Shown: positions 1 through 22,015 of the stretch, in pieces
How the letters are laid out: every line of letters starts with the position of its first letter
Numbering within the stretch: the first letter of the stretch is position 1
Assembly: GCA_022010095.1 (NCBI GenBank)
Contig: CP091739.1
Coordinates: forward strand, 620,001 to 684,000
Direction: 5' to 3'
From: Clostridium sp.
Lineage (GTDB): Bacteria > Bacillota_I > Bacilli_A > RF39 > UBA660
DNA length: 64,000 nucleotides
Position numbers and translations under genes: made by a program
The notes under the pieces: model-generated
Databases searched by the model: none
Told to the model about the DNA's origin: nothing
What the model saw: only the letters and a program-made list of their open reading frames with translations

Positions 1-311
1 ATACATATTGTAGGATTTTTATTAACAACAAGTGGTGCACTATCTCCTCCAAGTAAAGAAACAAGTTCATCTTTAAGAATCTTAACAAACATATCTCCTG
101 GCTTAATACTTTTTCTTACTTCTTCACCAAGAGCCTTTTCTTTAACACTATCTATAAATTCACGAACTATTTTAACATTAACATCAGCTTCCAATAAACA
201 AAGTCTAATTTCACGAGTAATATCACTAATATTATCTTCATTTATTACACCTTTAGATTTAATATTACTAACCACTTTTTTTGTAATCTTTCACTCAAGT
301 TTTTCAAACAT
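1..311 (-). CDS. ffh: Signal recognition particle GTPase Ffh (SRP54), N-terminal part, cut by window edge
   Basis: This is the 5' end of the SRP54 GTPase, which binds signal peptides and 4.5S RNA and delivers nascent membrane proteins to FtsY. Only the N domain and the start of the G domain are inside the window. The conserved N-domain segments REIRLCLLEADVN and SIKPGDMFVKI are clear, followed by LLGGD. The start is ATG at 311 with GGAAGGA about 9 bases upstream. An in-frame TGA at codon 7 disappears if an A5 run (codons 3-5) is read as A4, giving the canonical start MFENLSEK. I read the TGA as an indel error, not a recoded Trp. Family assignment is confident; the C-terminal M domain lies outside the window. 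Confidence 0.9.
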
Positions 312-359
312 ATAAATCTATCCTTCCTGTACAAATATTATAACAAACATTGTAATCTT

Positions 360-390
360 TATAAAGAAAAATGTGCATTTAAGCACACTA
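360..390 (-). terminator. Rho-independent terminator
   Basis: An inverted repeat TGTGC/GCACA with a 6-base loop is followed on the minus strand by a T-rich tract. It overlaps the stop codon of the gene ending at 388. The same hairpin with the same stop-codon arrangement recurs at 2310-2340. Confidence 0.7.
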
Positions 391-966
391 TTTCTTCTTA
401 TTTTCTCTTTCCTCTAATATTGTATCCATAAGTTCTGCAAAACCATAGAACATATCTTCAGCTATCCACATCAAATCTACTTTTTGATAATCTATACACT
501 CATGCATAAATTCATTTATGTCAGCACACACTTTTATTTATTCAAGTTCAAATAATCACTATCGCTAAATGGAAAAAAATCATTTTTATCATAATTATCA
601 TTATAATCTTGAAATAATTTATTGATTCTTGATAATTCTTCTACATTTTTATTTTCAATAAAACCACCTATATAGAAATAACCAACATTATATATATAAT
701 ATGGTTCTCCATATTCAAAACAACCATTACTGCATTCATTAAAATAGTGAATCTTTTTAACATAGTATTTAACAACAATTTCTTTATCATCAAGTAATTT
801 TAAATCTTTAACATTATCTATTTTAATAAACTTAACACTACCACTTTCTAAATATTTTATATATATAAAATGATATAAATATACGTCTTCCCTATCATTT
901 TTTAATATATCTTCATACTCTTTTTCTATCAATTAGATAATAATTTTTTTATCTTTAAAAATTCAT
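388..966 (-). CDS. Unknown small protein, frame-broken; shares its C-terminus with the gene at 1897-2220
   Basis: I do not recognise this protein. The ATG at 966 has AGGAG a few bases upstream; the longest uninterrupted frame runs from 932 to 534. One indel before codon 20 and one near 535 break the frame. After repair the protein has about 190 residues, is acidic and aromatic (motif GEPYYIYNVGYFYIGGF), lacks a signal peptide or membrane segment, and ends in a 40-residue module containing VDLMWIAEDMFYGFAEL and ILEERENKKK. The last 120 bp are almost identical to the end of the gene at 1897-2220, which indicates recent duplication or gene conversion. It could belong to an immunity-type or rapidly shuffled accessory family, but nothing in the sequence proves a function. 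Confidence 0.5.
390..510. repeat. Direct repeat, copy 1 (3' end of small gene)
   Basis: About 120 bp that match 1899-2019 with only a handful of differences. It encodes the shared 40-residue C-terminus (VDLMWIAEDMFYGFAEL) of two otherwise different small genes. Confidence 0.85.
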
Positions 967-1024
967 TAATTACTCTCCTTCTATTTACTAAAAAGATCTA
1001 TCAGATTCTCTTTTAGATTCGTCG

Positions 1025-1842
1025 CTAATATTTTTTTCCATAGCCACCTTCATAATATCTTCCATCTTTTTCTAGAATAACCACCACATTAATGAGTGAG
1101 TCCATCATTATAATCTTCAAATTTGTCATATTTAGGATAACCAGTATTTCTATCTCTTCTAATTTTTTTGATTCGTCTGGCATGTAATACTCATTTCTAA
1201 TCCAAATACTGTTGGGTGTATGGAGTAAAATTTTTTTAGATGACACATCAATATTCCATCTTTTTTTAAACAAATTTGTATTTCATTATCATACAATATA
1301 TCTGTTTTTTTCTGAAAAATAGTACACTTTTTAGGACCATCAATTATATGATTAGCACATCTGCATATATATTCAATTCTATTTTTTTAAATTCAAAGAA
1401 TAACCAATTATCACTATTTTTCTAAAGATAAATTAATTATTTCATTTTTTTAGCAACGTATGTTTCAATTTTAGGAGAATAAGACAAAAAAATATAGCTT
1501 CATCAATAATAGAAATCAATTCAGAAATCATAAGAGTATTTTTTTATTAACATTTTTCAGGATTAAACATATAGAAATTGGGATTAGCAAAAAAATACTT
1601 TTTAGCGTTATTTTTTTACCTATTATATAATAAGTATCAATTATTCTCTTACTATATTTTTCTTTAAAAACTTAAAAATATAACTTTCAAAATCAATAAA
1701 TTCTGCAATTTCTTCACCTGTAAATCCACAAAAAAATCATTCTTTTTTTCTAAGTTCATCATAATATTTTTTTGTTGTTTGTAGAATAATATAAACAAAG
1801 TAAATCAGATAATAATAAGCCTTCAGTATAATTAAATTCCAT
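1025..1842 (-). CDS. Unknown protein of about 270 residues, several frame breaks
   Basis: The start is ATG at 1842 with GGAGGTTGT directly upstream. The frame is broken at many A7/T7 runs, but stretches in successive frames join into one protein: FNYTEGLLLSDLL at the N-terminus, then CGFTGEEIAEFIDFE, FFANPNFYMFNPEK, CRCANHIIDGPKKCTIF, NSIWIRNEYYMPDESKK and a glycine-rich end EKDGRYYEGGYGKKY. There is no signal peptide or membrane helix. It sits between the two genes that share a 3' repeat. I do not recognise the family. The conserved-looking C-terminal block (IRNEYYMPDES, GYPKYDKFEDYNDG) might be a catalytic or binding module, but that is only an impression. Confidence 0.45.
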
Positions 1843-1896
1843 ACAACCTCCAATAAATATTATTTATTTGCTAATATATTGATGAATAGTAATAAC

Positions 1897-2220
1897 TTAT
1901 TTCTTCTTATTTTTTCTTTCCTCTAATATCGTATCCATAAGTTCTGCAAAGCCATAAAACATATCTTCAGCTATCCACATCAAATCTACTTTTTGATAAT
2001 CTATACACTCATACATAAAAATCACTTATATCGTCAGTACTATATTTAAAGCCTAACTTATAAACATTTTTTTATAATTTACATACTGGTAATATTGTTC
2101 AATTAAGTCAATTAAATATTTTTTTGTGCTTCGTCCTTGATATTTTTTTATCATCACACATATTCACAATAGTACTTAAAGAACATATGGTCTTTTTGAA
2201 ATAAACTTCTTATTTTTCAT
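1897..2220 (-). CDS. Unknown small protein, frame-broken; paralogous C-terminus to 388-966
   Basis: The start is ATG at 2220 with GAGGT upstream. After repair of three indels the product has about 107 residues: a basic N-terminus, a helical middle (STKKYLIDLIEQYYQYVNYKK) and the same 40-residue end as the gene at 388-966 (VDLMWIAEDMFYGFAEL). The N-terminal halves of the two proteins do not match, so the shared end behaves like an exchangeable module. No function can be assigned. Confidence 0.45.
1899..2019. repeat. Direct repeat, copy 2 (3' end of small gene)
   Basis: Matches 390-510 over about 120 bp with a few substitutions and one run-length difference. It forms the 3' end of the gene at 1897-2220. 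Confidence 0.85.
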
Positions 2221-2309
2221 TATTCTACCTCTTATAATCATAAAATATCATAAATAAGATTTTTAAGTAAATATTTTTTTAAAATTTAAAATGGTTCTAC
2301 ATAAATTAT

Positions 2310-2340
2310 AAAGAAAAAAATGTGCATTTAAGCACACTAT
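2310..2340 (-). terminator. Rho-independent terminator, second copy
   Basis: TGTGC/GCACA hairpin with the same loop as at 360-390, followed by a T-rich tract on the minus strand and overlapping a TAG stop at 2337-2339. It would end the operon that starts at the TIR gene. Confidence 0.65.
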
Positions 2341-2635
2341 TTATTTTTTTCTTTATAATATCATTTCTATTTTTCGATAAGTTTAATAATATTATCAATT
2401 TCTTCATTACTGTTTTTTTATCATTAAGTTTACTTATTAATGAACTAATATTATCTTCAATACCTTTTTACCATCTCATTACTAACTGGATCAGAATATT
2501 TAAGTTTATCAATTAATTTGTTTTTTTATATTCACTATTTAATTTTTGATATATTATTAATTTTGAATATCATTTCATCAATAAATTTAGTTTTTAATTT
2601 TTTGTATTAGTATCTAATTTTTTTATTTCTTTTTA
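2337..2635 (-). CDS. Charged coiled-coil-like segment, heavily frame-broken (may be the C-terminus of the next gene)
   Basis: Successive frames read as a lysine/isoleucine-rich helical protein with pieces FIDEMIFKINNISKIK, LKYSDPVSNEMV, GIEDNISSLISKLND and EEIDNIIKLIEK. No start codon with a ribosome binding site is visible, and the segment follows directly after the stop at 2636. It may therefore be the cytoplasmic tail of the LRR/membrane protein at 2636-3629 separated by an indel, or a small separate gene. It ends at the TAG inside the terminator. Confidence 0.3.
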
Positions 2636-3629
2636 TTAATGAACATTATTGTTACTACTGCTGTAAAAATATATTAAATTGCTAAATATTGTATAAGTTT
2701 GAATACCACTTCCAAAAGCATGGCTATGATTGCTATTATAATTCGCATAGAATGTAATTCCTAAAAATATAAATGTTAAAACATATATAGGAGTGCTTAC
2801 TGCTATTTCTTCAGGAGTTTTATCTTTAACAATAAGAATTACAATAGTTGTTAAAACAAATGCTACTACCGCAGAAATTACACAGTTTATATAATTGTTA
2901 TGATTCCATGGAGTAATAAAATTATCAGATATATTATTTATTGTATCAGGCAAATAAACTTCTTTATTATGACTGCCATCAAAACTTACTGATGTTACTT
3001 TCATGCCATTAACAGTTTCAGGTATAATTAAAACACCACTACTACCCTTATAATGAGTTAATTCAATATTGCCATCTTTTACATTATATTCAAATGGAAA
3101 TTCAATATAATTAAAATCAACAACTTCTGAATCATTTAATATATTAACATTTAATTCATTATTATTTTTTTAAGTTCTTCGCAATATTTACCTCTATAAC
3201 AATTGATAGTAATATTTTTTTAAAAATTCTCTACTGGTAAATATGTTATGTTGTCTGAAATATATATATTTTTAACTTTATCATTTTTTTAAATGAATCA
3301 CTTATTGATGTTACTTTAACTCCATCATATTCATATGGAATAACTAATGTTTCACTTAATCCTTTATATTCAGTTATTTCTAATGTATCATTAACTTTAT
3401 TATATGAAAAAAACTTTCTATATTTTTTTGTATATTTATCTTTTTTTCACTATCAGCTATCTTTTTCATAATTAATTCCATTCTTTTTTTGGCATATTCA
3501 AGAACATAATCATTATTGCTAAATTTAATTTTAATATCTCCATAATATTTTTTTCATTAGTAAGTGAGAATATCAAAGCAAGTGTTATTATAAATGAAAT
3601 TGCTATAAAAAAATTATTTTTTTCTTCAT
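2636..3629 (-). CDS. Membrane-anchored BspA-like leucine-rich-repeat protein
   Basis: The start is ATG at 3629, one base after the stop of the SPFH gene, so the two are translationally linked. After repair the protein has an N-terminal membrane segment (FIAISFIITLALIFSL), then repeats of the LRR_5 type: YKGLSETLVIPYEYDGVKVT and YKGSSGVLIIPETVNGMKVT each start a unit and are followed by a strand such as EVYLPDTINNI. Two further membrane helices follow near the end (CVISAVVAFVLTTIVILIV and PIYVLTFIFLGITFYA). The layout suggests an exported ligand-binding domain held at the membrane. BspA-like repeats are common in surface proteins; the role in this operon is unknown. Several breaks occur at T7 runs. 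Confidence 0.6.
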
Positions 3630-3630
3630 A

Positions 3631-4790
3631 TTACTCACCTACTTTCTTACCACAATAAGGACAAAATGCTGCATCATTTGGTAACTTTTTACCACAACTA
3701 CTACACACACTACCAGTCATATTATTACCACATTTTATACAAAATTTAATACCACTAGCATTTTCATATCCACAATTACTGCATATTGTTGAATTATCAT
3801 TTTTAGTAAAAGCACCAACTACATTTTTATTAACTGTATCACTTACTTTTGATGAAACACTGCTCATAACACCAAGTCCTACTCCCATATTAGTAAATTG
3901 ACCAACCGCATTATTAGAAGCCATTTTATCAAGAACGTTATATTGTCTTTCATCTTGATAACTATATCCTTCAGTTTCTCTTTTATGCGCTTTTGCTTCA
4001 CTATCAATAATTGTACTTTTAGCCTTAGTTTCTTCATCAATTAATGTTACTTTTTTTGTCTTAATTGAGCTTCTGCTACTGCGACACTTTGTTTAAAATA
4101 TAATTCTTTAAATTCAAGATATTGCTTATCATCTTCAGGTTTCATAACAGTAGTTACAAAGAACTTTTCAAGTTCAATACCAAATTCTTCAAAATCATTA
4201 GAAAGTAGATTTTTTTAAGTTCTTCACTAAACTCATTTAAATGACTATCAATTTCAAATATACTTATTTCATTTTTTTATTAATAATTTTTAGCAATATA
4301 AGATTTAACTTTAACAAGTATAAATGAACTAAAGAATTCATCAATATTTTCCCCCAGGTCAAAATTATCTTTAATACCAACTAATTTTTAATAATAGTTT
4401 TCTTGAATCAACTACTTTTAAATCTCATTTCTCCACAAGCACCTATTTGTATAGGAAACTTATATGTTGGTTCTAAAAATTCAATTTTACTACTAGTACC
4501 CCCACCTTGATGATTTAATAGACTTATCTATAAAGTATACTTCACAATGAAATGGACTTTTACCACCTGTTGGTAAATTAATTAAATTTCTAAGTAGTGG
4601 TATGTTATTTGTTTCAAGTGTATATCTACCTGAACCAAATATATCTAATGCCTTTCCATCCTTATAAAGTATAGCTTCCTGTGATTCATGTACAATTAGT
4701 TGACTACTTGTATTAAAATCAGTTTTAGGATACTTCCATACAATATTTTTCATCATCTTTCTCTTTCTTTATTATTTCAAATAAAGCCAT
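3631..4790 (-). CDS. SPFH/band-7 domain protein with C-terminal double zinc ribbon
   Basis: This matches the bacterial SPFH family once called virion-core-protein-like. The N-terminus has the typical WKYPKTDFNTSSQLIVHESQ, FGSGRYTLETNNIPLL and PTGGKSPFHCEVYF. The middle (frame-broken, about 3930-4490) has the SPFH/coiled-coil region, and a glycine-rich linker (NAVGQFTNMGVGLGVM) precedes two zinc ribbons with CxxC pairs (CSNCGYE, CIKCG, CSSCGKK, CPYCGKK). The best start is ATG at 4790 with AAGGTG upstream; reading one A5 as A4 joins MALFEIIKKEK to the conserved start of the domain. SPFH proteins form membrane-associated oligomers. It lies between an SH3-like membrane protein and an LRR membrane protein in the TIR operon. 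The assignment is firm, the biological role is not. Confidence 0.82.
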
Positions 4791-4815
4791 AATATTCACC
4801 TTTCCTTTTTCTATA

Positions 4816-5405
4816 TTATTCTTTCTCTAATACTTCAACATAATCTTTATTATCAAATTTACCACATATCCAGCCATTAACTTTAAATCCTGTTTCTATA
4901 TTATACCAGATTTCACATAATCCATTTGAACCATTTCTACTATCAAGAACATCATATATTTCATCTTTTTCTAACAGTTCCTTTTTTTCATAACTATAAA
5001 CATCATCATCACTTCTTATATTAATATGATCAGCAATTACTTTAATTTGATCTATTGATGTATTTCTATCATTTGATTGAGTAGGAAGTGGTGAAGTATT
5101 TATAATAACACTAATTATTCCTATTATAAATGTTAATATGTAGAAGAATGTATTTAATATTTTTTTATCTTTTTGGTATATAGTTTTCAGTAAACTCTTT
5201 ATTGCTTTTTTTAATATTTCTTCTTTTTTTCTTCTTTAGTAACAATAAGTGGTACTTCTTTTTATTCCCCAGGAAGGCTTAATAAATAATAGTGCAATAT
5301 TAAGTAAAAATTATAATATATGTAACAAATGTTCTTTGCATTACCAAAAATTATGAAGCTTTAAAATAAATAATAACTCTAAAAAAACACATTAACTATA
5401 TACAT
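4816..5405 (-). CDS. Membrane protein with C-terminal SH3-like domain, frame-broken
   Basis: Readable blocks are a hydrophobic N-terminal part, a charged segment KEVPLIVTKEEKK, a membrane helix (ILTFIIGIISVIINTS) and a C-terminal domain of about 95 residues: IKVIADHINIRS, LLEKDEIYDVLDSR, WYNIETGFKVNGWICGKF and DYVEVLEKE. The pattern INIRS...EIYDVL...WYNI...GWI resembles bacterial SH3 (SH3_3) domains that bind cell-wall peptides or partner proteins. The start is uncertain because two or three indels lie at 5215-5400. It is co-directional with the TIR gene upstream and the SPFH gene downstream. Confidence 0.5.
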
Positions 5406-5418
5406 ATATTTAGATACT

Positions 5419-6651
5419 TTATTTGATTTTTCTACTAGCAAATCCTAGAAAAAATGCAATTGCAGTGATTATACCAACTAATAATTGATATGAAAAAAAA
5501 TTTTTACCTTCACTAATTAAACTATAAGTTTCACCAAGATAATTATAATAACAATAATTACCAGTTAAAGCAATCATGCATCCTGCCATCATAGCAGATA
5601 ACACAAATGTAATTAAGATATATGAAGTTGAACACTTATTTCTTTTTTTCTATAACATCATATCTTTTTAGATAATTCTTCTTGTTTTTCTCTTTCTTCT
5701 TCAAGCATCATTTGTTTGAATTTCTGATACATATCACTATCTATATCAGTAGATTTCTTATTAATGATTTTTCCTACTGCTGTAATTAAATCTTGCATAG
5801 AACCAACTTTATCTATACATAGTGCTTGTAACATTGAAAACTCTTCTGGTAATTCATAAGCATCCATCTTACTATAAACTGGAATCAATACTTTTTTCTT
5901 TTTATTTTTTATTAAGTCTAAGTATCTACTCCACTCATTTTTAACCCATACTGAATTTAAATTATCAGCATTAGTGCCTACTACTAACATAACTTTTGAA
6001 CTATTAAGTGCTGAAAAGATATATGGTTCATATTCTTCACCAAGTTTATCAGCAAGAGTAATTCTAGCAAAGAAAACTTTATAATTTAAATCAGTTAATT
6101 TATTATATATATCCTGAGCAATAACACTATCAGTAGTTCTATCTCCATTTATATCTCCTTCTTTATAACAAATAAAGATATCATAATCTTCTTCATTATT
6201 AGAAATTTCAAGTGCTTTCTTTTGAATATTACTAATAGTTTTTGCTTCTTCTTTATATATGTTTAATGCTTCTCCATAGGCTTTACTAATTATTATTTTA
6301 TAATCAGGATCAGTTAAAACAGATTCATACTTTGTTCTATGACAAGTAATCATTTTCTTTTTAGTTTTTGGATCATCTACATATTCAACACCATATCTAC
6401 AAAGTATTAGTCCCCAATGAGCTTCTAACTGATTTTCATCTATTTCAAGTATAGTTTCATATACACCATATGCTTTATCAAATTCATTTGATAGTCTTAA
6501 ATTATTAGCTCTATTATATAAATTTAAAAAGTTTTTTTCATTATCAACGCTTGGCAGAGTCATAGTGCTTTTTACAATATAAGCATTTACCTATATTACT
6601 ACCTTCAACTACTTCTATATCTCCACCACACATCTTACATTTAAAGACCAT
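5419..6651 (-). CDS. TIR-domain protein with N-terminal zinc ribbon and C-terminal membrane helices
   Basis: TIR domains of this kind are typically NAD(P)-consuming effectors or oligomerisation modules. From ATG 6651 (GGAGG 8 bases upstream) the protein starts with a zinc ribbon (FKCKMCGGD, KCLYCK); reading one A5 as A4 joins it to the long frame. A helical TPR-like region follows (about residues 35-140, with YNRANNLRLSNEFDKAYG and HWGLILCRYG). The TIR domain spans about residues 155-295: EDYDIFICYKEGD, RTTDSVIAQDIYNKL, YKVFFARITLADKLG, EYEPYIFSALNSSKVMLVVG and VWVKNEWSRYL. The Glu residues in EYEPYI are candidates for the catalytic glutamate. A stop at 5658 lies in an A-rich run; repair continues into CSTSYILITFVLSAMMAGC and LLVGIITAIAFFLGFAS, two likely membrane helices. 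Otherwise those 62 residues form a separate small membrane protein. Confidence 0.75.
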
Positions 6652-6672
6652 TGTTACTGCCTCCATACTAAA

Positions 6673-6720
6673 CATATTTTTACCATAGATATATTTATAC
6701 TTCAATTATAACTAAATAAA
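6673..6720 (-). promoter_or_regulatory. Possible promoter of the TIR operon
   Basis: On the minus strand TTGAAG is followed after 17 bases by TAAAAA, about 20 bases before the ribosome binding site of the TIR gene. The match is weak in an AT-rich background. Confidence 0.3.
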
Positions 6721-6854
6721 TTTAGAAATAAAATATTTTTTTATATTAAAAAAAGAAAAATTAAAATACTTTTTAACTTATTCAGGTAATATTTAAAAAA
6801 ATGCATTACAATTTTTCATTAATAATTTATCGCATAATAAAAAAAGAAAACGCA

Positions 6855-14214
<7,360 letters not shown>

Positions 14215-16197: not shown

Positions 16198-17567
16198 ATT
16201 AATTATTACTTTAATCTTTGTAGTTCTAGATGAATAACTTAATCTTACATCATCTCCAGTAACCATAACAGGAACTTCATATTCGCCCTCTGCTAAGTCA
16301 CTTAAATCAACATAAGCTTTTAATATTCTCACTATTTAATTTATCAAGTAAAGTTTTTAACTCCTTTAACAACTACATTAACTTTAGTATCACTTTGACT
16401 AGAAGCAAGTGCTCTATATTTCTCAGTATTTAAATTTTTCAAATGTAAGTGGAATATCTTTAAATTCTTTAGATGTTTCCTTTTCCATTACAACCTTAAT
16501 TGTAATATTTGTATTAGACATACTTCTTACACCATTAGGTTTTTCAATTGTTTCTTGATATGTCTTATCTTTACTTAAACCATCAACATTGATATCAACA
16601 GTTATTTCATCAATAGATTTTAATGTTTCATCATCACCATATAATGTAACTGTATTAACATTTGCTGATATTGAACCAATAGCACTTCCACTAGCCACAT
16701 CTCCAACTGGAACTACTTTAACTGGAACAACCTTACTTGGTGAAGTAACAGTAACAGTAGCAGTAATTGTACCTGGAACTATTTCTATATTAGTAATCTC
16801 AGTACCCATTTCATCATATGCTACTAATTTAACATTTTCAAGTTTATATTCACCAGGTTTATCAACATTAAGAGCATTTACATCAACTAATGCTTTAACA
16901 CTAGCAACATTCTCTAATTTTTCTTTATAAGACTTAATTATTACTGTATCTCTATCAAGTTTAACACTACTTATAACAAATGTTTCATTAAGTTTATCTT
17001 TATTAAGTATATCAGCTGTTATAGTTCTACTTTCACTAATCTTAGAATGTATAACAAGCGTTATCTTTGATGGATCTAATTTATAATCAAGTTTAATTGG
17101 ATTATTATATTTAAGTTTAACTTTATGAGTACCAGAAGTATAACCACTTAAATCAAGAGTTAACTTATGTTCATCAACAAGTTGTTCTGCTAAATATAAA
17201 CCACTCTTTTTACCCATTAAAACTATATCAGCAGTTTCAGGTATTCCCTCAACAACATATTCTTCTTCATTATAATCAGCCGTTATAGGTATTTTTAGTA
17301 AGTACTACACTTTCACTACCAGTTAAATTAACAACATCATTATCAACTGCAAAGAATATTATAAGTGCAAAGAATAATGATAAATATACTAATGTATTAG
17401 GATTATTTAAGAATTTCTCAAAACCTCCATTTTTACTACTTAATTTATCCCCTATAAAATAGAAGAATTTAGAAAGCGGAACAATTATTATAACATCAAG
17501 AATCTTATATAAGAATTTAAATATCTTACCAAAAGAATCTACCTATACTAGTTAGTAGTTTTTTCAT
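16189..17567 (-). CDS. cdaR: CdaA regulatory protein CdaR (YbbR domains)
   Basis: Membrane-anchored protein with extracellular YbbR repeats that modulates the diadenylate cyclase. The start ATG at 17567 lies inside the end of cdaA. An N-terminal basic/hydrophobic segment is followed by the membrane helix TLVYLSLFFALIIFFAV and then several YbbR repeats, for example LTLDLSGYTSGTHKVKLKY, EYKLENVKLVAYDEMG and IDEITVDINVDGLSKDKTY. Breaks at 17300, 17530, 16435 and 16330-16360 are repaired in A/T runs; the protein then ends SRTTKIKVIINKK at TAG 16189-16191. About 455 residues. Confidence 0.88.
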
Positions 17568-18486: not shown

Positions 18487-18850
18487 TTAAACGTAATACT
18501 CGAATATAAAATTATAAAATCTTATTAACACTTTACGATATTTATTAAACATTTTACTTCTTCTTAAATACCTATCATATGTATTTAATTCAGTATAATA
18601 ATAGTCATACATATTATAGTTATTAGAACTATCAAGAACAACATAACTTATATGATGACTTCTAAGTCTTTTTCATAAGTTTTTCTAAATATTTGAATTT
18701 AAGTATTACTACATCTTCCCTACCTATTACATGAGTAACGTATTCTACAATATGAGCATCATCATCATACACTCTTAAACTATTACCATATAATATTATC
18801 AACAATGAACCACTATGTACTTCCTTTAAACACCTTAAAGTATCTTCCAT
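18487..18850 (-). CDS. Unknown small protein, about 120 residues
   Basis: The best start is ATG at 18850 because AAAGGA sits right upstream; a longer frame begins at GTG 18865. One indel near 18672 is repaired to join LEKLMKK with RSHHISYVVLDSSNNYN and the aromatic/basic tail DYYYTELNTYDRYLRRSKMF, ending at TAA 18487. The pattern GSLLIILYGNSLRVYDDDA faintly recalls the mismatch-recognition domain I of MutS, but without the conserved Phe-X-Glu motif I would not name it so. Function unknown. Confidence 0.5.
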
Positions 18851-18908
18851 ATTTATCCTTTCCACTGCTTTATTTATTATTAACTCAATAATTCAAAATT
18901 TAACATTC

Positions 18909-18920
18909 TGCCTAAAGGCA
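18909..18920 (-). other. Small stem-loop
   Basis: TGCC/GGCA with a 4-base loop inside the unusual non-coding stretch between 18866 and 19089. Confidence 0.4.
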
Positions 18921-18962
18921 AACATCCCATAACCAATGCATTAGTTTTTAGTTCTTATCCTC

Positions 18963-18987
18963 CTACCCGTGCTTTCGCATGGAGTAG
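18963..18987 (-). other. GC-rich hairpin with GAAA tetraloop
   Basis: On the minus strand CTACTC and GGGTAG pair, the inner TGC/GCA pair closes on a GAAA tetraloop. It lies about 100 bases downstream of the surface-protein gene ending at 19090. The 220-base gap around it is more GC-rich than its surroundings, has no convincing gene and may hold a structured RNA or recombination site. Confidence 0.55.
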
Positions 18988-19089
18988 TCACTTCATAACA
19001 TCTTTCATACTTTTTTTGTTTTAAGTCGGAGTTTGTTTTTGTTCTCTCTTCCAATTACGTTTTGCTCTAGTTTACATATGCTTTATATA

Positions 19090-20568
19090 TTATCCCAATC
19101 GGAAAGCTGGAGCGACATCGCTTCTACCACCAGCAATGCCGATACCCCAATCCCCGCTAGTGCCAACAATTAAGAAACCGCTAGTATCATTAGAATAAGC
19201 CGTGCGAAGCCACCATAACTTAGCACTAGTTCCATTTTTCTTTATTGCTCCACTATAACTACTAGTCGTTACTCCTATACTTGTATAATAATCTAAGGTT
19301 CTTGTTAAATCTTTTGCTGCATCACCACTACTAGAAAAATTTGTATATATTTCTTTTGGTGCTAATAAATATAATTTATCTGTTGATGTGAAGTTTGTTT
19401 CTCCACTTGTACTTCCATATCCTGATACTACTGTTGTATCTATTATTGCATTCTTTATTTCACTTGGTATTGCATTATATATATCATTATTTACAAATGT
19501 TCTCATGCTTGTTGCTGGCCATCCTCCTACATTTGTATCTGTATCATTCATTTTATGTCTTGTTATAATATCTGCAAATTCAAGTACAAATCCACATGCA
19601 CTTTGTGAGAAACCTGATGTATTACATTCACTTGGTGTGGATGTGTTTGCTACTCTTAAAGTATGAGTTCCATAAGTACCCATATCAATTTTTTTTGTAT
19701 CGCCTACGTTGTATTTACTTATATTATTATTTTTAACTGCTTTAGATATTGTAATCCATGAATCGGTACTGAATGAATTAGGCTCCATCATAACATACAA
19801 CATGACATCATCGTTTATTGTTGAACTAGTTGTATATTCCGTACCATTAGCGTTCGCTTTAGTATAATATCTACCATTACTAGGTAATGAACTTAATATT
19901 GAGCCTGAACTTACTTTTTCTTGACTCTAATACTGTTTTTATCATCTTCATTAAAGAATGTTACAACATAACTTATCTTCTTTGAACTATCAAATTTACA
20001 ACTAGTTGATTCTTTAGCATCACTTCCATTTACTGATACATATGCATTTACTGATGTACCAAGTAAACTTGCTAAACTTATTGTAGGATCTTCTACATAT
20101 CTTAACCATATATAAAGTGTGTATGTAATACTTTTTACTACTTTCTATAAAATCACTATCATATATTAATAATTTATTATCAGCTATATCTTTAAATGAT
20201 CCTTCACTTACGTTTCCTGTACTTGAAACTACTTTATAAACTAAGTATTCACTCTTTAATTGTTCTGAAATACTATTAAAGTTAAGATAAAGTTTCATGC
20301 ATCCATTAAGAGTACTATTACTACTACTAATAGTAAATTCCTTTTTAAAAGCTTCTGTTTCATAATTACTACTTCTAATAGGAGCCATACTACTTATATT
20401 AACAGTTGTATCAGTAACACTTAATTTTAAATTACCAGTAACTACTTTTGTATCATTAATTGTTCCACCTGTTATTATATTAGGTCCTACAAAAGCAAGA
20501 GTTGCTGTTAAGATAGCACCTATTATCATACATATTCCTATTATTATATACTTTCTATCTATCTTCAT
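19090..20568 (-). CDS. TasA-like surface protein with DUF6273/lectin-like C-terminal domain
   Basis: One protein of about 490 residues after repair of breaks at 19925 and 20100-20135. The N-terminus has a single membrane/signal helix (YIIIGICMIIGAILTATLAF), followed by a TasA/camelysin-like beta domain (residues 30-170: TGNLKLSVTDTTVNISSMAP, MKLYLNFNSISEQLKSEYLVY). The middle is extracellular, and the C-terminal domain (from about residue 260) has MGTYGTHTLRVANTS, NVGGWPATSMRTFVNNDIYN and the end LWWLRTAYSNDTSGF...VAPAFRLG, as in DUF6273 and formylglycine-generating-enzyme/C-type-lectin-like folds. The last 40 codons are nearly all NNY and G/C-richer than the rest, a diversity-generating-retroelement-like feature. 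The ATG is at 20568. Confidence 0.65.
19093..19216 (-). other. Candidate DGR variable region (VR) with IMH-like end
   Basis: Coding sequence from the WWLR motif to the stop. Codons between the fixed Trp codons are almost all of the form NNT/NNC (GGC, ACT, AGC, GAT, GGT, ATC, GCT, GTC), as expected if adenines of AAT/AAC template codons were randomised. The final 25 bases coding APAFRLG are GC-rich and look like the initiation-of-mutagenic-homing site. No template repeat or reverse transcriptase lies in the window, so this is inference from pattern only. Confidence 0.45.
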
Positions 20569-20864: not shown

Positions 20865-22015
20865 CTACATAAGGTTTTTATTATTAAAGATATTTTTTTG
20901 GTTAGCTTTTGTAGTAGCAGTTACTTTAACATCAGTGGTTACCTTACTAATAGCACCAGTTGATTCTACGATACTATCAATAGTATATCCACCAGTTACG
21001 GATGTAGCTGTTTTATTTTTATAATCTTTATAAGTGTAACGATATGATGGCTTTACAGCAGCATCTATATTCCAGCTAACATTTTGATTAGCTTTAACAG
21101 TGAAAGTTGAATTTTTACCACTGGCTTTATCATCTTTAGTATAGGTTTTTACCATCGTAAGTTAAGGCTAAATCTTTTTCATAATAAATGGTAGCTGTTG
21201 CACTTTTTCCACTAGGTGTTTTGGCAGTTACCGTAATTGTAGCACCATTAGAACAATTTTTTTAGGATTAGAAGAAACGCTGATAGCACCAGTATTTTTA
21301 TTAATAGTCATACAGTTCGTATTACTTAATGAATAAGTAACTTTTTCCACTAGAATTTTTTTAACTTTAGCTGTAGCTGTAGCTTTTTTTAATACCATTA
21401 ATATGAAGAGTATTTCTACTTAAGGATAAAGAAATTTTCTCTTCTTTCTTAGGCGCTATTTTTTTCCCACTTAGCATATAAAGTAGTATCTTCTTCTAAA
21501 AAGAGCATTATTATGGATTTGAGTATCATTTTTATCATACCATCCTTTAAAAGTATAACCAGAATATGTAGGATTTTTTGGAAGGATAAGCTCAGCACCC
21601 TTATTAATAGTAATAGGATCAACAGCACTACCACCTTTAGAATCAAAAAGTAATAGTAATTGTTTCAACTCGTAAAGAGCTTTTTAGTTTAATACTCTTA
21701 TTAATTTTTAGTATTAAAGTCAAATGGTTTATCAGATAAAACATCTTCTTTTTCTTTAATACCAATTACTTCATACCAAGCGATAAATGATTCTCCCAAA
21801 TCTTTTTGAGTTTTTGATGTCTTTTTTTCATTAATGGTTTGTTGATATTTAATTTTTAATAGTTTCTTCTTTGTCACCATTATTAAAAATCAAAAAAATG
21901 ACATCAAACTTACGATTGAAAAAAACCATAGTAAGAAAAATAATTATAGCAATTAATAAAACACCAAATACAATAGCAATAATTTTTTTCTTATTTTTTT
22001 GTCTGTTTTAGTCAT
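20865..22015 (-). CDS. Membrane-anchored surface protein with Listeria-Bacteroides (InlB B) repeat and Ig-like domains, frame-broken
   Basis: ATG at 22015 with AAAGGAGGAAT upstream. After repair: short basic N-terminus, one membrane helix (AIVFGVLLIAIIIFLTMVFF), a linker, a Flg_new/InlB B-repeat (residues about 130-195: ITITFDSKGGSAVDPITINK, NPTYSGYTFKGWYD, LYAKWEK), then Ig-like repeats with LSLSRNTLHI, SNTNCMTINKNTGAIS and TITVTAKTPSGKSATATI, ending WNIDAAVKPSYRYTYKDYKN and TTDVKVTATTKANQ. Extracellular adhesin-like architecture with an N-terminal anchor; no sortase signal. At least six indels. The gene is bracketed by direct copies of the spoVS 3' end. Confidence 0.7.

What the first reader, a model, noticed from the sequence alone, without database searches (positions are those of the whole stretch)
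19093..19216. C-terminus of a TasA-like surface protein looks like a DGR variable region
Seen: between the WWLR motif and APAFRLG, almost every codon ends in T or C and the first two positions are mixed (GGC, ACT, AGC, GAT, GGT, ATC, GCT, GTC), in a genome that otherwise favours A/T; the final 25 bases are GC-rich. Known: diversity-generating retroelements mutate adenines of AAT/AAC template codons, in C-type-lectin-like domains ending in similar VAPAFR-type motifs, next to an IMH site. Inference: this surface protein is, or was, a remote target of a DGR. A GAAA-loop hairpin follows downstream.
Basis: partly seen in the sequence, partly recalled or inferred. Interest (0 to 1): 0.8.

Follow-up and report, generated by a model that had tools for sequence, protein, structure and literature searches.

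The report
Retroelement-diversified lectin on surface protein
The end of this bacterial gene, which probably encodes a surface protein, carries the signature of a known genetic device (a diversity-generating retroelement) that rewrites a binding site over and over; related genomes hold the matching device, but it is not in this stretch of DNA.

Summary
The minus-strand ORF 19803-19090 is a DUF6273 domain, modelled confidently with a C-type-lectin fold. Its last 37 codons look like a diversity-generating-retroelement (DGR) variable region (VR): the only 111-base stretch of the window reaching 50% GC, with 81% NNY codons. Across 63 distinct homologous VRs, variability per position follows the adenines of template repeats (TRs) found in related genomes (Spearman 0.83-0.88). 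Eight genomes of the same order carry this TR type beside a reverse transcriptase (RT); where own TR and VR could be compared in a cassette, 0, 0 and 1 non-adenine positions differ. A GRNA-loop hairpin lies about 100 bases downstream.

Not shown: a TR or RT in the window's own genome. The window has none, the genome is not held, and protein searches gave none assignable to it (120 of 528 and 120 of 160 hits listed). Of 31 target-bearing relatives, 25 lack a detected RT of this kind, so an orphan target is a serious rival. DUF6273 DGR targets are published for Faecalibacterium phages; this is a chromosomal-looking member of that kind.

The parts
19099..19209 (-). Variable region (VR), 37 codons LRTAYSNDTSGFLIVGTSGDWGIGIAGGRSDVAPAFR
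   Evidence: Codon and GC signature, homology to five TRs of related genomes with mismatches enriched at TR adenines, variability profile of homologues
19099..19116 (-). IMH-like conserved 3' end of the VR (GTCGCTCCAGCTTTCCGA)
   Evidence: The same 18 bases end the VR of G356; its TR has GATTTCTGT in place of GCTTTCCGA. Role inferred from published IMH/IMH* (PMC12875486 passages)
19090..19803 (-). ORF with DUF6273 domain, modelled as C-type lectin, ending in the VR
19914..20144 (-). Middle part of the same gene in another frame (open stretch; true limits uncertain)
   Evidence: Three-frame translation; by eye it continues into the next frame as in homologue P0003
20020..20568 (-). N-terminal part of the same gene with a hydrophobic N-terminus, weakly similar to PF12389-carrying homologues
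   Evidence: 29% identity over 112 residues, E 7e-5, to P0004; no Pfam hit
18963..18987 (-). Hairpin with GAAA (GRNA-type) loop about 100 bases downstream of the VR; candidate target-site stem-loop
   Evidence: -11 kcal/mol, z -2.19, 8 of 200 shuffles as good; one of 2 such hairpins among 1,442 GRNA tetramers folded. Not recognised by the covariance model of the relatives' hairpin

Best explanation
The 3' end of this gene is the variable region of a DGR target. A template repeat elsewhere was reverse-transcribed by an error-prone RT with an Avd-like partner; template adenines, mostly in AAY codons, were randomised, and the cDNA replaced the VR next to a conserved 3' end (IMH), with a GRNA-loop stem-loop downstream. 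The product is a C-type-lectin-like tip on a probably surface-anchored protein, whose variable segment changes while its frame is kept. Shown here: the VR signature, homology to TRs, cassettes in relatives, the modelled fold and the hairpin. Inferred: that the window's own genome holds the TR and RT and acts on this copy in trans (I give about 0.6 for that part), the cell-surface location, and ligand binding. The confidence below is for DGR origin of the VR.
For: Variability of 63 distinct homologous VRs against adenines in codon positions 1-2 of five TRs from other genomes: Spearman 0.83-0.88. Window VR against the five TRs (last four codons left out): 20-26 of 33-40 adenines differ, 15-20 of 59-66 other bases (Fisher 1.5e-4 to 3e-3; TRs are related, so not independent); the rest of the gene gives at least 36-42 non-adenine mismatches in 483 registers. 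K, E, Q, M and W are 4.4% at variable positions and 16.7% in the framework. Own TR against own cassette VR: G074 20/37 adenines and 0/62 others; G356 14/33 and 1/66; G513 19/40 and 0/59. TR of this type beside RT in eight genomes. VRs on different contigs of one genome share third codon positions in the cleanest pairs (0/39, 1/39, 2/39, 2/39) while positions 1-2 differ (22-28 of 78). Lectin fold. Hairpin.
Against: No TR or RT in the window; genome not held; no RT or Avd-like hit on a contig of 1,526,647 bases among the 120 listed of 528 and of 160. 25 of 31 target-bearing family genomes lack an RT match at E<=1e-30. 15-20 non-adenine mismatches to the relatives' TRs, so none is the window's own TR. 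VR nearly fixed within one other lineage. Several same-genome VR pairs differ at up to 23 of 39 third positions. The hairpin model of relatives does not find the window hairpin, and its distance exceeds the published 4-34 bp (PMC3240598 passages).
Confidence: 0.9

Rival explanations
1. Orphan or fossil target: the VR was made by a DGR, but this genome has lost the RT and template, or received the gene already diversified; the VR is now frozen. (A sub-case of DGR origin, so its odds overlap with the best explanation.)
For: 25 of 31 target-bearing genomes of one family lack an RT of this kind at E<=1e-30. Avd-like proteins are few (160 hits) beside 3,770 hits for the target domain. A 32-residue piece of an Avd-like gene follows a target in G310. 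VR nearly fixed in 20 homologues of 412 aa. Drifted, AT-rich VRs exist, for example L120, L121 and L131.
Against: The window VR keeps its GC-rich skeleton and T/C third positions, unlike the drifted copies (GC 0.35-0.38). Relatives are draft assemblies, in which repeats are easily lost, and the window's genome could not be searched.
Confidence: 0.35
2. No DGR: an ordinary DUF6273 protein whose loop varies by diversifying selection and recombination among paralogues.
For: The family is large and mosaic: 3,770 hits with different N-terminal parts. Frozen VRs are shared by whole lineages.
Against: Does not explain the fit to template adenines, the shortage of K, E, Q, M, W, or VR pairs with unchanged third positions, nor cassettes with the same target.
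Confidence: 0.05
3. The gene is a phage or prophage receptor-binding protein rather than a host surface protein.
For: Published DUF6273 DGR targets are in Faecalibacterium phages (PMC11792537). PHROG 10993 (Hoc-like head decoration) matches at 3.4e-12. Six phage records have relatives, 27-32% identical in the rows shown.
Against: Neighbours look chromosomal: YbbR by Pfam, rpoB, rpoC and ribosomal-protein-like ORFs recognised by eye. IMG/VR gave one 21-residue match for the single protein and none for the alignment, the TR pattern or the Avd-like profile. Many homologues carry PF12389, PF07963 or PF03382.
Confidence: 0.04

Closest known systems
DUF6273 DGR targets of Faecalibacterium phages Lelie, CP11, Roos and Pioen (PMC11792537; passages and section 31 read)
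   Same: VR at the C-terminus of a DUF6273 domain
   Different: Those are phage targets in phage-encoded DGRs; here a chromosomal-looking gene, RT and TR not in the window, 27-32% identity to the phage rows found
Treponema denticola DGR with TvpA-type targets (PMC4891356; passages read)
   Different: Lipoprotein targets of a spirochaete; no sequence relation tested here beyond the fold comparison
Bordetella phage BPP-1 DGR (PMC3240598, PMC12875486; passages read)
   Same: Accessory gene, TR and RT in order; IMH at the VR end; downstream stem-loop with GRNA-type loop
   Different: Phage-borne; stem-loops reported 4-34 bp from the VR, here about 100; relatives' stem has an internal GA/GA loop
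Tentaclins (PMC10743442; passages read)
   Same: C-type-lectin DGR targets, two targets for one DGR
   Different: N-terminal lectin plus Ig domains, on phages
N-terminal DUF6273 domain of Thomasclavelia ramosa IgA peptidase (9qa6; PMC12402451 passage)
   Different: Domain of an enzyme; no DGR link was looked for

Membership tests
Diversity-generating retroelement target | Variation concentrated at template adenines (AAY codons) | tested here: met
   63 distinct homologous VRs against TRs of five related genomes, Spearman 0.83-0.88; window VR mismatches enriched at TR adenines. Uses templates of other genomes, not its own
Diversity-generating retroelement target | Template repeat in the same genome, identical to the VR except at adenines | tested here: inconclusive
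   None in the 64-kb window; the rest of the genome is not held
Diversity-generating retroelement target | DGR-type reverse transcriptase in the same genome | tested here: inconclusive
   None in the window; no listed RT or Avd-like hit on the 1,526,647-base contig, lists capped. Present in related genomes
Diversity-generating retroelement target | Accessory protein (Avd) with the TR and RT | tested here: inconclusive
   Not in the window. In relatives a conserved basic 179-182-aa protein (pI 9.5-9.6 in three) precedes the TR, but no Pfam, NCBIfam or PDB match names it Avd
Diversity-generating retroelement target | IMH-type conserved 3' end of the VR, differing slightly from the template's | tested here: met
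   18-base VR end shared with G356; TRs of five relatives end in GATTTCTGT instead. Retrohoming function not tested
Diversity-generating retroelement target | Downstream stem-loop with GRNA-type loop | tested here: met
   Hairpin 18987-18963, loop GAAA; farther from the VR than published cases, and not matched by the relatives' model
Diversity-generating retroelement target | C-type-lectin (or Ig) fold holding the VR | tested here: met
DUF6273 (PF19789) | Profile score over the curated cut-off | tested here: met
   57.5 bits against 23.5
TasA/camelysin surface protein | N-terminal PF12389-type region | tested here: inconclusive
   No Pfam hit; weak similarity to P0004, E 7e-5

The most novel reading that the evidence does not exclude
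In a lineage of Bacilli, a chromosomal (non-phage) DGR acts in trans on a dispersed family of cell-surface proteins: one diversified DUF6273 lectin tip mounted on several anchors (PF12389-type, pilin-like N_methyl, PF03382-containing), with a distinctive target hairpin whose stem carries a GA/GA internal loop under a GNRA-like loop. It would give a commensal a repertoire of changing surface binders.
Probability: 0.45. Interest if true: 0.65.

Novelty: new member of a known kind. Interest (0 to 1): 0.52.

Why it matters
If right, a little-studied group of bacteria diversifies binding sites on its own surface, not only through its phages. A large DGR survey states that it would miss remote targets because its contigs are short (PMC8144416, passage), so such targets may be undercounted. 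The template logic makes the claim testable from existing genomes and reads.

Tried and rejected
A TR in the window: an ungapped scan of both strands found nothing with fewer than 26 non-adenine mismatches of 124, apart from the VR itself. RT or Avd-like gene in the window (queries from three relatives): no tblastn hit better than E 1.2. IMH-like DNA pattern in viral contigs: none. Relatives in viral contigs: one 21-residue match for the single protein, none for the alignment. Plasmids: no match. Phage records: 6, all under 60% identity. TR pattern and Avd-like profile in viral contigs: none. Rfam over 18500-19300: none. Sequence search of solved structures with the domain profile: none at E<=1.

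A first structure job with 57 close homologues was poor (pLDDT 53.8); the second, with more distant relatives added, was good. Foldseek alone gave one match at E<=0.001.

I hoped the relatives' hairpin model would find the window hairpin. It did not: the nearest match, 18992-19041, E 5.2, is a different stretch and one of 21 weak hits. I claim only a similar layout. Over 62 relatives' loci the model found the hairpins it was built from, copies of them, and one weak extra (L023, E 0.015). Seven of 11 pairs change on both sides among 9 relatives, but the rows were picked by their motif and the structure was chosen after folding five of them.

To find the window's own genus I searched its rpoB-like ORF: 33 of 36 chosen genomes matched at 70-75%, and the best seven of 193 genomes of the order at 81-82%. 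The family of G184 (183 genomes, 14 with a target, none closer than 63%) and the genera of G184 and G125 (1 and 2 genomes, none) gave no closer target. Relatives of G327: 3 of 78. RVT_1 hits without this TR type were not pursued.

Literature: DGR plus TasA 0 papers; a four-term search 0; two of DGR/Erysipelotrich/Mollicutes/RF39, 20 of 769 listed, none of the 20 holding the DGR term; DUF6273 5 papers, two also holding the DGR term. These do not show that the chromosomal case is unpublished. Recalled, nothing read: Bacteroides DGRs acting on pilins; that PDB 8ub7 and following (matched at 1e-9 by the RT profile) are the BPP-1 DGR complex; the names of PF12389 and PF03382.

Full report
What is there. 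The finding lies on the minus strand at the 3' end of an ORF of 237 codons (19803-19090), named DUF6273 by Pfam. The gene continues upstream in other frames to about 20568. Its N-terminal piece is weakly similar to homologue P0004 (29% over 112 residues, E 7e-5). Other ORFs in the window that look like housekeeping genes are also broken, so the frameshifts may be assembly errors; I did not test that.

Homologues. A protein search gave 3,770 hits; 120 are listed, 71-82% identical apart from the window's own protein. Of the 120, 114 end in the WWLR pattern of fixed length, with 65 distinct VRs; 20 columns hold eight or more residue kinds, between conserved anchors. K, E, Q, M and W are 4.4% at those columns and 16.7% in the framework. 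The listed homologues carry the domain with PF12389, PF07963 or PF03382, or without them.

The retroelement in relatives. A search with alignment A1 (the window's protein and 19 homologues) over 385 genomes of the order of G001, a Bacilli assembly, matched in 216, many only in the N-terminal part. Of 27 genomes I chose from that list, 12 had an RVT_1 match. In G074 and G327 target, Avd-like gene, template and RT lie in a row. The same order is seen in G356 and G513, where the RT matches are partial (242 and 226 of 352 positions). G081 has the last three parts, with the contig ending near the Avd-like gene. Templates of this type lie beside an RT also in G205, G488 and G063; the G063 RT is interrupted by stops; in G070 the RT starts near the contig end and no template was found. 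A typical template reads LRAANSNNTNNFYNVNNNGDWNNNNANNTNGVAPDFC.

Own template against own VR, last four codons left out: G074 cassette 20 of 37 adenines changed and 0 of 62 others; G356 14/33 and 1/66; G513 19/40 and 0/59. Remote VRs: G074 24/37 and 2/62 (L126), 18/37 and 6/62 (L128), 17/37 and 12/62 (L127, two near-identical copies); G081 16/35 and 5/64 (L129), 14/35 and 23/64 (L131). VRs of other length were not counted: two copies in G327, one more each in L126 and L128, and L130.

Remote action. The cleanest VR pairs on different contigs of one genome share third codon positions while positions 1-2 differ: G001 0/39 and 24/78; G310 1/39 and 27/78; G074 2/39 with 28/78 and 2/39 with 22/78. 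Other pairs in the same call differ at 3 to 23 of 39 third positions, which I read as decayed or separately evolved copies.

The window VR against the templates. Adenine mismatches 20-26 of 33-40, others 15-20 of 59-66 (Fisher p 1.5e-4 to 3e-3; the five templates are related). None is therefore its own template. The rest of the same gene never comes closer than 36-42 non-adenine mismatches in 483 registers. The variability of 63 distinct VRs (window dropped) follows the adenines of each template, Spearman 0.83-0.88 (all). This is the strongest evidence, since the templates come from other genomes.

Hairpin. The window hairpin 18987-18963 is one of two strong GRNA-loop hairpins found on folding 1,442 GRNA tetramers; the other is near 16198. 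Nine relatives have a hairpin downstream of the VR with covariation. The window's has a similar layout but is not recognised by their model. Published phage hairpins have GRNA loops, 7-10 bp stems and lie 4-34 bp from the VR, the distance being called flexible (PMC3240598 passages).

Against a working system here. No TR or RT in the window; genome not held. In 386 genomes of one family, 31 have a target and 20 an RT at E<=1e-30; 6 have both: G074, G081, G070, G356, G513 and, with a weak RT match, G257. Draft assemblies lose repeats, but orphan targets are likely common. In 20 homologues of 412 aa the VR is nearly fixed, with one three-state residue (R/C/L, position 403) and one other change. 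Avd-like proteins number 160 hits beside 3,770 for the target domain.

Verdict. A DGR variable region, confidence about 0.9. Whether a template in its own genome still serves it is open: about 0.6 for active or recently active in trans, 0.35 for orphan. The kind is known (DUF6273 targets in phages, PMC11792537; dispersed bacterial targets in T. denticola, PMC4891356); the chromosomal Bacilli setting with several anchors is the part for which my limited searches found no report.

Noticed in passing
window 5658-12945 and elsewhere: Several ORFs that look like housekeeping genes (rpoB- and rpoC-like, by eye) are split, as is the target gene, suggesting indel errors in the assembly.
   Followed up: no
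L064 (G327:C32) 154-7646: Target and start of the Avd-like gene occur twice, either side of the RT and a 576-aa ORF that looks like a transposase (by eye).
   Followed up: no
L039, L040, L041, L049, L061: A second type of asparagine-rich template (ending GLRPAI / GVRPD-like) lies near other RTs, in genomes that also hold the first type or its targets.
   Followed up: no
L072 (G310:C3) 3748-3835: A second, weaker hairpin match (E 0.75) follows the first downstream of the VR, and a 32-residue Avd-like piece follows: a decayed cassette.
   Followed up: partly
P0004, P0011-P0032 and others, residue 403: Among 20 homologues of 412 aa, one VR residue is R (7), C (8) or L (5) while the rest of the VR is almost constant.
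   Followed up: partly
window 18900-18930 (minus strand), L012, L095: A small inverted repeat with a short loop follows the hairpin in the window; similar ones precede the Avd-like gene in G356 and G513, possibly terminators (by eye).
   Followed up: no
window 21471-21668: ORF with a Listeria-Bacteroides repeat (PF09479, E 6.5e-12) upstream of the target gene.
   Followed up: no
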